Part shown: positions 16,533 to 20,501 of the stretch, piece by piece
Layout of the letters: each line of letters begins with the position of its first letter
Position numbering within the stretch: the first letter of the stretch is position 1
Virus record (IMG/VR): IMGVR_UViG_3300048903_000252
Span: 1-22,689 of that record
Direction: 5' to 3' (one strand)
Source of the DNA: a virus
Length of the DNA stretch: 22,689 bases
Position numbers and translations under genes: made by a program
The notes under the pieces: model-generated
The model's database searches: none
Told to the model about the DNA's origin: nothing
What the model saw: the letters and a program-made list of their open reading frames with translations, nothing else

Positions 16533-16886
16533 TTTCCACTCCCTGATCTGCAAGTTTTATCAGTTGGCGGCTTATTTGCAGGGCATGCCATTCCGTGGCG
16601 TGTCCGCACGCATGTCAGTTCCGATTGTGAGGGGAGTTCTCCTCCTCGGTTCCCCAGCACGTTTTTTTTGTTGTGCCGGGCCTCGACGCTCCCGACACCG
16701 TCCTGTCGCCCGGATGTCATTTGGCCAAATATTGCCGCTTGAGTCCAGACTCCGGTTGCAGAAAATTTGGACGGCTATTCCTGATGGAACATTGCAACCG
16801 GCAATAACGTCGAGCGCAAGCCGACGTAGCCAAATTTCGGCTAGCCAAATTCCGGCTAAAGATGGTGCCAAGCTTATCGTGCGGAG
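16533..16886. promoter_or_regulatory. regulatory region between divergent HTH genes
   Basis: This stretch has no convincing gene. It separates the minus-strand repressor from the plus-strand small XRE gene and is relatively AT-rich. Besides the tandem palindromes at 16827-16858 it holds ATTGC-5-GCAAT at 16791-16805 and an imperfect GGCCAAATATTGCC at 16723-16736, all sharing GCC/CAAA/GGC half-site features. Promoters must lie here on both strands, but no -35/-10 pair was good enough to assign. Confidence 0.6.
16827..16858. promoter_or_regulatory. tandem palindromic operators
   Basis: Two 17-bp palindromes of form TAGCC-7-GGCTA lie at 16827-16843 and 16842-16858, sharing two bases. Their inner heptamers are nearly identical (AAATTTC and AAATTCC). 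They end 28 bases before the GTG of the XRE gene. Tandem symmetric sites at this distance are what a dimeric phage repressor or Cro-like protein would use; which of the two flanking HTH proteins binds them is unknown. Confidence 0.65.
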
Positions 16887-17138
16887 GTGCGTACGATTTA
16901 CACCCGGCAGTATCGAGCGTTTGTGAAGGCGATCAAGGAGGAGCGACTGCGTCGCGGCCTGTCGCAGACCGACGTCGCCAAGCGGCTCAAGGTCTCGCAG
17001 TCCTCCTGGGTATCCAAGCTCGAAATGGGACAGCACCGGATCGACATCGTCGAGTTCTATCGGTTGGCGAAGGCGATCGGCTTCGATCCGATCAAAATGC
17101 TGCGCAAGGTCTATCGCGAGAATAACGGGCGGCGGTAA
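16887..17138 (+). CDS. small XRE-family HTH regulator
   Basis: This is an 83-aa single-domain Cro/C1-type protein. It has an N-terminal tail (RTIYTRQYRAF), an HTH with LRRGLSQTDVAKRLKVSQSS and helices ending in EFYRLAKAIGFDPIKML. Proteins of this build usually begin (M)KTIY.R.Y..F, which supports the GTG at 16887 despite a GCGGAG that lies directly against it. It is divergent from the larger repressor and directly downstream of the tandem operators, so it may act as the Cro counterpart. There is no gene immediately downstream, so it seems to be transcribed alone. Confidence 0.75.
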   Translation: MRTIYTRQYRAFVKAIKEERLRRGLSQTDVAKRLKVSQSSWVSKLEMGQHRIDIVEFYRLAKAIGFDPIKMLRKVYRENNGRR

Positions 17139-18872: not shown

Positions 18873-19340
18873 CTACGCCGCCTTGCGGGGCCGCTTAGGC
18901 GGCGGCCCCTCTTGAGCGGATTCCGGTGGATATAGCTTGCTCACGCGATCAATCGCTCTCCACACCGGCATGAGTTCTTTAACACGCTGGAATTTGACCT
19001 GTGCGCGTCGAAGCTCCGCAAGCGCATCCTGTAGCATGACCTTGCCCAGACGCTCGTTGGTCACAACGTCATTGATCGCGCGATATCCGCCGCCCTTGCT
19101 GCGATCGACGGTCAGCGAAACGAGCTGCGGCGTTCCTTCCTCAGAAACGAAGTAATACTGGATGACATGCCGCGCTTGAAATAGGCGATACTCCTCCGCG
19201 GCCTTGTTATCGTCCCATTCGAACACGCCATGCAGTTCGGATTTGGTATGAGTGCGCGCGTAACTGATAACTGCGTGCGCGTGCAAAAGCCCTCCTTTGT
19301 CCGCCTGTTTGATCGCCTCTAGCTCGTCTTTGATCGCCAT
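18873..19340 (-). CDS. conserved hypothetical early protein (155 aa)
   Basis: The start is the ATG at 19340, which has an excellent GGGAGGA site about five bases upstream; the frame is also open through the repeat tract to its right, but that is low-complexity. The protein begins with a charged helix (KDELEAIKQADKGGLLHAHA). It then has an acidic middle (GVFEWDDNKAAEEYRLFQAR), a beta region (YYFVSEEGTPQLVSLTVDRS) and a Pro/Lys-rich end (PPPKRPRKAA). It is the last gene of the early recombination operon and converges with the integrase gene, whose stop is three bases away. I do not recognise a family. Confidence 0.7.
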   Translation of the reverse strand: MAIKDELEAIKQADKGGLLHAHAVISYARTHTKSELHGVFEWDDNKAAEEYRLFQARHVIQYYFVSEEGTPQLVSLTVDRSKGGGYRAINDVVTNERLGKVMLQDALAELRRAQVKFQRVKELMPVWRAIDRVSKLYPPESAQEGPPPKRPRKAA

Positions 19341-19365
19341 CGGTTTCCTCCCGTTGCAAATAACC

Positions 19366-19790
19366 GTGCCTGCCACGCCTCGCCATGCCTTGCCTTGCCA
19401 AGCCGCGCCGTGCCGCGCCACGCCGCGCCTGCCCCGCCCTGCCTGCCGCTCCGTGCCAAGCCGCGCCCAGCCGCGCCCTGCCACGCCGTGCCGTGCCACG
19501 CCAAGCCGAGCCTGCCGTGCCCCGCCTTGCCTTGCCAAGCCACGCCCCGCCGCACCGAGCCACGCCATGCCTGCCCTGCCTTGCCCCGCCTTGCCTCGCC
19601 CTGCCTTGCCGGGCCATGCCTTGCCAGGCCTGCCTCACCCAGCCGAGCCGTGCCGCGCCAAGCCCTGCCGCGCCTGCCTCGCCTCGCCGTGCCGAGCCAC
19701 GCCGCGCCTTGACATGCCGAGCCATGACATGCCGTGCCACGCCTGCCGCGCCTCGCCATGCCTTGCCCAGCCAGGCCGTGCCTTGCCCCG
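19366..19790. repeat. 425-bp degenerate GCCNN pentanucleotide tract
   Basis: The plus strand consists of about 85 units with a GCC core and a variable two-base spacer (GGCNN on the transcribed minus strand). A few 4-base units always use a single T (GCCTGCC). Where the core is mutated (TCC, ACC, GAC) the 5-bp spacing is still kept. The spacers TA, TG and CG are absent by my reading. The tract starts about 12 bases upstream of the 155-aa gene's ribosome site and ends three bases from the stop of the 235-aa gene, so it fills the intergenic gap exactly. It is not a CRISPR: there are no long repeats or unique spacers. Confidence 0.9.
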
Positions 19791-19793
19791 TCG

Positions 19794-20501
19794 TTACTTC
19801 GCAATTTCCCAAAGCCCCCATCCGAGCCCGGCCGACTTTGGCGAATCCGGCCGGCCCTCGCCGACACCGACCTGCATGCCGGCACGGCTGAATAGGTTGA
19901 CGACGTCGGCGATCGAGAACTGATCGAGATCGAAACGAACGGTTACGGTCGCTTCCCATCCCTCGCGCCACATTGGCCGACAACGAATGTCGGTCGTTCC
20001 GCCGGCATTGCGAGCTGGAGCGATATGCCTGACAGGCGCGCCCTTGGTGATTTTCACCAGCGGTGTGCCGTCGATTGCATCGAAGCCATCGGCGACGACG
20101 AAGATAGAGAGCTTGCCGATCGTCATCTTGAAGCCGGACATGCGGCAAGCAGAGATCATAGCATTGCGGAACGCTGGCGCCGGAATTCCCCACCAGCCCT
20201 GTACCGACTTGTGCATCGCGCCTTCATAGACCGCATCGAAGTTCTTCGGATCGCGCTTGCGTCCCTTGCGCGACTGCTCGCCGAGCATCTGGGTCTCGAT
20301 CATCGTATTGCGTGCCTTCTGCGAGAAGGCGTGCTGCACATAAGGTGCCGTGCCGTTGATGCGCAGTTTTACCGTCTGCATCTTCGGCGGTTGGATGACC
20401 AATTGTCTGGCCGATCCTGCCGCGGCGGTTTCGAGCTTAACTACCTTTGCCGACATTCGTCCGCGTCGCCGTGGCTCGTCTGCTAGTGCGGTATTAGTCA
20501 T
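19794..20501 (-). CDS. conserved phage protein of the recombination operon, function unknown
   Basis: This 235-aa protein has an N-terminal basic tail (RRRGRMSAKVVKLE). A body follows with the strand KLRINGTAPYVQHAFSQKA and a helix with WGIPAPAFRNAMISACRMSG. It closes with a beta-rich half including VTVRFDLDQFSIADVVNLFS and a glycine-rich end (VGVGEGRPDSPKSAGLGWG). From recall this layout is widespread in phages next to exonuclease/annealing genes but has no established role; the Gly-rich end invites comparison with nucleic-acid-binding RAMP-like folds, which is speculation. The ATG at 20501 overlaps the excisionase-like gene's stop and has GGGAGG upstream. Confidence 0.7.
   Translation of the reverse strand: MTNTALADEPRRRGRMSAKVVKLETAAAGSARQLVIQPPKMQTVKLRINGTAPYVQHAFSQKARNTMIETQMLGEQSRKGRKRDPKNFDAVYEGAMHKSVQGWWGIPAPAFRNAMISACRMSGFKMTIGKLSIFVVADGFDAIDGTPLVKITKGAPVRHIAPARNAGGTTDIRCRPMWREGWEATVTVRFDLDQFSIADVVNLFSRAGMQVGVGEGRPDSPKSAGLGWGLWEIAK

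What the first reader, a model, noticed from the sequence alone, without database searches (positions are those of the whole stretch)
19366..19790. Degenerate GCCNN pentanucleotide tract inside a phage recombination operon
The tract has about 85 units with a fixed GCC core and free dinucleotide spacers. It keeps a strict 5-bp period even where the core is mutated, and phase slips occur only through 4-base GCCT units. It fills exactly the gap between two co-directional early genes. Spacer dinucleotides TA, TG and CG were not found, so the spacers are not random. No standard element (CRISPR, REP, iteron, microsatellite) has this mix of fixed core and free spacer. Possible roles are an origin or protein-coating array, a structured RNA in the sense transcript, a rho-loading region on the C-rich antisense strand, or a recombination hotspot for the adjacent annealing and exonuclease genes.
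Basis: partly seen in the sequence, partly recalled or inferred. Interest (0 to 1): 0.8.

Follow-up and report, generated by a model that had tools for sequence, protein, structure and literature searches.

The report
Phage VIPR guide-RNA array
The odd five-letter repeat is very probably a phage's store of guide RNAs for a recently described CRISPR-like system (VIPR), in which two variable letters in every five help spell out which rival phage DNA to recognise.

Summary
In detail: the tract (19361-19787) holds 87 units between two genes transcribed on the minus strand. But it is no longer unexplained. On the transcribed strand it reads (GGC-NN)n, and the gene just upstream (19794-20501) encodes a RAMP-fold protein of the family named Vipr in a 2026 preprint (PMC13142463; PDB 36pp). 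VIPR systems pair Vipr with RNAs of alternating GGY/NN motifs; the NN pairs, read with a one-base skip, specify target DNA.

Independent support here: degenerate GCCNN arrays in viral contigs co-occur with the Vipr family (79 of 98 contigs; 0 of 27 controls). A cyanophage and mycobacteriophages found through the protein alone also carry the array. NN letters resemble codon positions 1-2. Two sibling phages appear to target each other's Sak4-like gene.

Two points are not in the preprint's main text. The 4-nt GGCA units punctuate arrays mostly every 8-13 units, cutting this tract into guide-sized modules. Two near-identical mycobacteriophage arrays differ by exactly two whole GGCA-bounded modules. 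The accessory gene (18873-19340) is unlike the gene beside vipr in SUSP1.

No convincing target of this window's own guides was found. Verdict: new member of a known, very recent kind.

The parts
19361..19787 (-). VIPR guide-RNA (vrRNA) array, 87 units of GGY-NN in sense, punctuated by eight GGCA units
   Evidence: parse; family comparison; preprint PMC13142463
19748..19787 (-). module 1: AA-AC-CT-TG-AA-AT-GA-GC (8 units)
   Evidence: boundaries inferred from GGCA
19679..19743 (-). module 2: GT-AC-AT-AT-TC-AT-AA-GC-GT-TC-AC-GA-GA (13 units)
   Evidence: boundaries inferred from GGCA
19635..19674 (-). module 3: GC-AG-TT-GC-AC-TC-TG-GA (8 units)
   Evidence: boundaries inferred from GGCA
19576..19630 (-). 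module 4: CT-AA-AT-CC-AA-AG-GA-AA-GG-AA-AG (11 units)
   Evidence: boundaries inferred from GGCA
19517..19571 (-). module 5: AT-GT-TC-GC-GG-GT-TT-AA-AA-GG-AC (11 units)
   Evidence: boundaries inferred from GGCA
19448..19512 (-). module 6: TC-TT-GT-AC-AC-GT-AG-GC-TG-GC-TT-AC-GC (13 units)
   Evidence: boundaries inferred from GGCA
19434..19443 (-). 2-unit remnant between two GGCA units: AG-GG
19375..19429 (-). module 8: GC-GT-GC-AC-GC-TT-AA-AA-AT-GA-GT (11 units)
   Evidence: boundaries inferred from GGCA
19794..20501 (-). vipr: RAMP-fold protein, 235 aa, phrog_4652
18873..19340 (-). probable accessory gene (vap), 155 aa, phrog_15946, unlike the SUSP1 neighbour of vipr

Best explanation
The tract is the guide-RNA array of a phage VIPR system. 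It would be transcribed on the minus strand between vipr (19794-20501) and a probable accessory gene (18873-19340) as RNA of the form (GGC-NN)n. By analogy with SUSP1 VIPR, Vipr subunits coat this RNA, GGY is not used for pairing, and the NN pairs base-pair with DNA in steps of three, skipping one base that usually falls on the codon wobble position. The complex would block transcription of genes of competing phages, prophages or satellites. The 4-nt GGCA units most likely mark boundaries of successive guides, so the array would store seven guides of 8-13 units plus a 2-unit remnant. Shown here: sequence, gene order, protein family and fold, co-occurrence, punctuation statistics, whole-module difference between relatives. 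Inferred: expression, processing, RNA binding, targets and repression in this phage.
For: Profile of 84 homologues hits PDB 36pp 'SUSP1 Vipr protein' at 2.2e-37; SUSP1 Vipr is phrog_4652 at 1.4e-96 and aligns to this family with 99.9% probability. AlphaFold model (pLDDT 89.7) matches Csm3/Cas7-type RAMP proteins, Foldseek E 3.6e-5, VIA Z 11.4. phrog_4652 in 79 of 98 contigs with degenerate tracts and 0 of 27 control contigs. Converse: Cyanophage Cy-LDV1 and Mycobacterium phage Donkeykong, found by protein, carry the array beside the gene. Sense strand is GGC in 74 of 87 tracts with agreeing flanks. NN usage correlates with codon positions 1-2 (r 0.67) and not 2-3 or 3-1. GGCA spacing of 8-13 units in 171 of 306 gaps against 63 (max 87) in shuffles. 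Donkeykong array = Clifton array + 113 nt, exactly two modules. A guide of L266 matches L264 18/18 and one of L264 matches L266 15/16, in frame, at homologous sites of a Sak4-like gene.
Against: No convincing target for this window's own guides. The all-loci search did not discriminate skip lengths: 13 hits at skip 1, but 22 at skip 2. No structured 3' tail recognised after this array. 19 of 98 tract contigs lack a detected phrog_4652, possibly because they are fragments or carry divergent homologues. No expression data. The reference is a preprint.
Confidence: 0.93

Rival explanations
1. It is a VIPR array, but GGCA units are only tolerated one-base slips rather than guide boundaries, and guides are produced or read in another way, for example as overlapping staggered RNAs.
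For: The preprint reports staggered arrays with overlapping vrRNAs; some arrays here (L024, L110, L082) have no 4-nt units; some GGCA units are adjacent or 1-4 units apart.
Against: Spacing peaks at 8-13 units far above shuffles, the 4-nt unit is nearly always GGCA, and two near-identical arrays differ by exactly two whole GGCA-bounded modules.
Confidence: 0.35
2. A binding array for the neighbouring recombination proteins (annealing protein or exonuclease), acting as DNA: origin, coating array or recombination hotspot.
For: Exonuclease gene lies in the same gene cluster; DNA repair genes occur among flanking genes of kin.
Against: Association is with phrog_4652, not with recombination genes; sense-strand orientation and codon-like NN usage point to an RNA with coding-derived content.
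Confidence: 0.03
3. Neutral low-complexity DNA that arose by slippage and decayed, or a translated repeat protein.
For: Uniform-spacer GCCNN microsatellites are common in cellular genomes; the tract is open in several frames.
Against: Spacers are near saturation while the core is conserved; core CCG gives no such tracts; position and gene association are non-random; frame-shifting GGCA units and lack of any preferred frame argue against a protein.
Confidence: 0.02

Closest known systems
VIPR of Escherichia phage SUSP1 (type II; PMC13142463; PDB 36pp)
   Same: Vipr family (phrog_4652), GGY/NN repeats in the intergenic space beside vipr, small second gene beside vipr, phage-encoded.
   Different: SUSP1 uses mainly GGT cores in separate ~100-nt RNAs with a folded tail; this window has one 427-nt GGC array punctuated by GGCA, no recognised tail, and a second gene of another family (phrog_15946 against phrog_5926).
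VIPR loci of mycobacteriophages Donkeykong, Clifton, Brocalys, Zizzle, ByChance (Cheoctovirus) and Cyanophage Cy-LDV1
   Same: Same three parts: GGC-NN array with GGCA units, phrog_4652, phrog_15946.
   Different: Protein identity about 33% (mycobacteriophages) and 55% (cyanophage); array lies upstream of vipr in the mycobacteriophages; annotated only as hypothetical proteins, with a spurious gene over the array in Donkeykong.
Class 1 CRISPR-Cas effectors (Csm3/Cas7 backbone)
   Same: RAMP fold; protein filament on a guide RNA with periodic interruption of pairing (preprint; fold match).
   Different: No CRISPR repeats or spacers; guide information is interrupted every two bases; minimal locus.
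TRAP binding sites (NAG-NN repeats)
   Same: Triplet plus dinucleotide architecture bound by a protein oligomer (own knowledge).
   Different: Spacers are not known to carry information there and the protein is unrelated; analogy only, not tested.

Membership tests
VIPR system | Vipr protein: RAMP homologue of the Vipr family | tested here: met
   sequence; fold
VIPR system | RNA-coding tract of alternating GGY and hypervariable NN | tested here: met
   84 of 87 cores GGC/GGT, 13 of 16 spacer types
VIPR system | tract in intergenic sequence flanking vipr, minimal two-gene locus | tested here: met
   same layout in kin
VIPR system | 9-16 repeats per guide RNA | tested here: inconclusive
   GGCA-bounded modules of 8, 13, 8, 11, 11, 13, 2, 11 units; guide ends are inferred
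VIPR system | one-base-skip recognition of DNA targets | tested here: inconclusive
   supported in kin L264/L266 and by codon-like NN usage; no target for the window's guides; all-loci test not discriminating
VIPR system | vrRNA expressed and bound by Vipr | not testable with these tools
   needs small-RNA sequencing and pull-down
VIPR type II (SUSP1 type) | structured invariable 3' tail on the guide RNA | tested here: inconclusive
   no tail recognised by eye after the window array; some kin share a conserved 3' segment
VIPR type II (SUSP1 type) | second gene is Vap1 (SUSP1 gene beside vipr, phrog_5926) | tested here: not met
   neighbour is phrog_15946; no similarity by BLASTP or profile
CRISPR array | identical repeats of about 20-40 nt separated by unique spacers | tested here: not met
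   repeat unit is 5 nt with a 3-nt core

The most novel reading that the evidence does not exclude
GGCA is a punctuation mark of VIPR arrays: it delimits, and perhaps directs processing of, successive tail-less guides in one long transcript. Arrays evolve by gain or loss of whole GGCA-bounded modules, and sibling phages aim guides at each other's recombination (Sak4-like) genes. This would be an array architecture distinct from the SUSP1 type and tied to the phrog_15946 accessory gene.
Probability: 0.55. Interest if true: 0.7.

Novelty: new member of a known kind. Interest (0 to 1): 0.55.

Why it matters
VIPR is a proposed ancestor of CRISPR with an interrupted guide code, known from one 2026 preprint. 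This window and its kin extend its arrays to many uncultivated phages and to lab-tractable mycobacteriophages, where a near-identical pair of arrays differs by two modules. They suggest how long arrays are divided into guides, and so how such systems could gain new ones. The phage records examined carry these loci as hypothetical proteins, one of them with a false gene over the array.

Tried and rejected
BLAST of the tract itself in phages: no match. Literature searches by 'pentanucleotide repeat' terms found nothing relevant; the preprint was found only through the PDB hit. A 5-nt register of annealing proteins and a TRAP-like ring were set aside once Vipr was identified. Five modules searched in viral contigs: modules 2, 4 and 6 gave no hit; module 5 gave three hits, the best 20 of 20 bases over ten units and in frame, but in a contig of 32% GC against 62% for the window, judged chance; module 8 gave nine hits for its first nine units, best 21 of 22 in frame in prophage L360, but such hits are common for this alanine-rich pattern. 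Modules 2 and 6 had no match with up to three mismatches in 385 genomes of one class, and no close Vipr there. Guides of five mycobacteriophages had no convincing target in those phages or in the Cy-LDV1 region. All-against-all guide search did not discriminate skip lengths. The accessory-protein model (pLDDT 94) had no significant PDB match; best rows are forkhead DNA-binding domains at E about 1. No host could be assigned: one tail-region protein had no phage match and the window had no plasmid match.

Full report
Observation. The tract was re-read on both strands. On the minus strand, the direction of the flanking genes, it is 87 consecutive units: 79 of five bases and eight of four, all eight reading GGCA. 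Cores are GGC or GGT in 84 of 87. It begins just after the stop codon of the 235-aa gene and ends just before the start of the 155-aa gene. The missing spacers TA, TG and CG are real for this tract but not a rule in kin.

Is it a class? The same search with core CCG gave 27 stretches, all low-entropy microsatellites. In cellular genomes the GCC hits examined were mostly microsatellites too. Across 175 tracts in 104 contigs, 183 of 211 four-nt units are GCCT on the GCC strand, and mutated cores are mainly ACC, i.e. GGT in sense. Tracts are mostly intergenic, often start within about 20 nt of a stop codon, and carry GGC in the sense strand (74 against 13 where both flanks agree), by a simple longest-ORF gene call.

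What goes with it? Among 122 flanking genes the commonest family is phrog_4652 (36), that of the 235-aa protein, then phrog_15946 (19), that of the 155-aa protein. Over whole contigs phrog_4652 is present in 79 of 98 with degenerate tracts (42 of 50, 37 of 48), many of them short fragments, and in none of 27 control contigs found with the CCG core. The converse also holds: Cyanophage Cy-LDV1 and Mycobacterium phage Donkeykong, found by the protein alone, both carry the array beside the gene. In Donkeykong the array is annotated as a protein gene, gp48.

Identity. A profile of 84 relatives matched PDB 36pp, 'SUSP1 Vipr protein', at 2.2e-37. The preprint on SUSP1 VIPR, PMC13142463, describes VIPR: a RAMP protein, Vipr, and RNAs of alternating GGY and NN that recognise DNA with a one-base skip and act against competing phages. 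SUSP1 Vipr is itself phrog_4652, aligns to this family with 99.9% probability, and lies beside GGTNN arrays. The AlphaFold model of the window protein (pLDDT 89.7) matches Csm3/Cas7 backbone proteins. The identification rests on protein family, fold, repeat grammar and gene order together.

Grammar. Gaps between successive four-nt units fall at 8-13 units in 171 of 306 cases, against 63 on average and 87 at most in 2000 shuffles. In L119 the spacing is almost constantly ten. The window's tract is thereby cut into modules of 8, 13, 8, 11, 11, 13, 2 and 11 units, close to the 9-16 repeats reported for single vrRNAs. The array of Donkeykong equals that of Clifton plus 113 nt, exactly two modules with their GGCA units; taking them out of the comparison leaves one difference in 237 nt. 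GGCA-bounded modules are therefore units of array change. That they are also units of processing is inference. The preprint's main text does not mention this punctuation, but its supplement could not be read and mentions of staggered arrays may cover it.

Code. Across kin the first N is a purine in 67% of units while the second is nearly flat. NN frequencies correlate with codon positions 1-2 of this phage's genes (r 0.67) and not with positions 2-3 or 3-1, as expected if guides copy coding sequence with the wobble base skipped. Between two relatives of the window (Vipr 62% identical to the window's), a guide of L266 matches L264 at 18 of 18 bases over nine units, and a guide of L264 matches L266 at 15 of 16 over eight. 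Both sites lie in frame at homologous places of a Sak4-like AAA gene (gene named from the Pfam and PHROG hits among flanking genes, and its P-loop). My rough chance estimate for the first, within the sibling set, is 1e-4; the second alone is weak. A test over all fetched loci did not separate skip lengths (13, 8, 22 and 7 hits for skips 1, 0, 2 and 3; shuffles at skip 1 gave 2-10). So the code is supported for this subfamily but not proven here.

Targets of this window. Five modules were searched in viral contigs. Three gave nothing. Module 5 gave three hits, the best 20/20 over ten units in a 32%-GC contig. Module 8 gave nine, the best 21/22 in prophage L360. Neither stands out from chance. 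Two 13-unit modules had no match with up to three mismatches in 385 genomes of one class. The host is unknown, so these negatives say little.

Membership. It is filed as a VIPR system because protein family, fold, repeat grammar and locus layout were tested and met. It is not filed as type II: the second gene is unrelated to the SUSP1 one, and no tail was recognised. Which of the preprint's seven types it belongs to could not be decided.

Verdict. A real, functional-looking element, already explained in kind by a 2026 preprint. Added here: independent co-occurrence evidence, GGCA punctuation, a two-module difference in lab phages, and a candidate case of sibling targeting.

Noticed in passing
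L353:5471-5820 (Mycobacterium phage Donkeykong); L366-L369: Cheoctovirus mycobacteriophages carry VIPR loci annotated as hypothetical proteins; Donkeykong gp48 is a spurious gene over the array, and Donkeykong differs from Clifton by exactly two modules.
   Followed up: yes
L264:2911 and L266:5764: Candidate reciprocal targeting: guides of two sibling phages match each other's Sak4-like gene at homologous in-frame sites.
   Followed up: partly
3' ends of arrays in L066, L103, L078, L117: A conserved segment follows these arrays (CACAAACCGC...GAGCGGGGTA, with a possible ACCGC/GCGGGGT stem), which looks like a guide-RNA tail.
   Followed up: no
L353:5805-5830: The mycobacteriophage array ends in a perfect 8-bp inverted repeat TTGGCTGG-GCAA-CCAGCCAA.
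   Followed up: no
L194, L370, L371 (alphaproteobacterial MAG): One of the few cellular contigs with a degenerate tract; its genome has two phrog_4652 genes about 2.7 kb apart.
   Followed up: no
L024, L110, L082: Arrays without any 4-nt GGCA unit (up to 142 units in L024), perhaps another VIPR type.
   Followed up: no
window 16827-16858: Two copies of a 15-bp repeat TAGCCAAATTCCGGC just upstream of the small HTH gene at 16887; possible operator sites.
   Followed up: no
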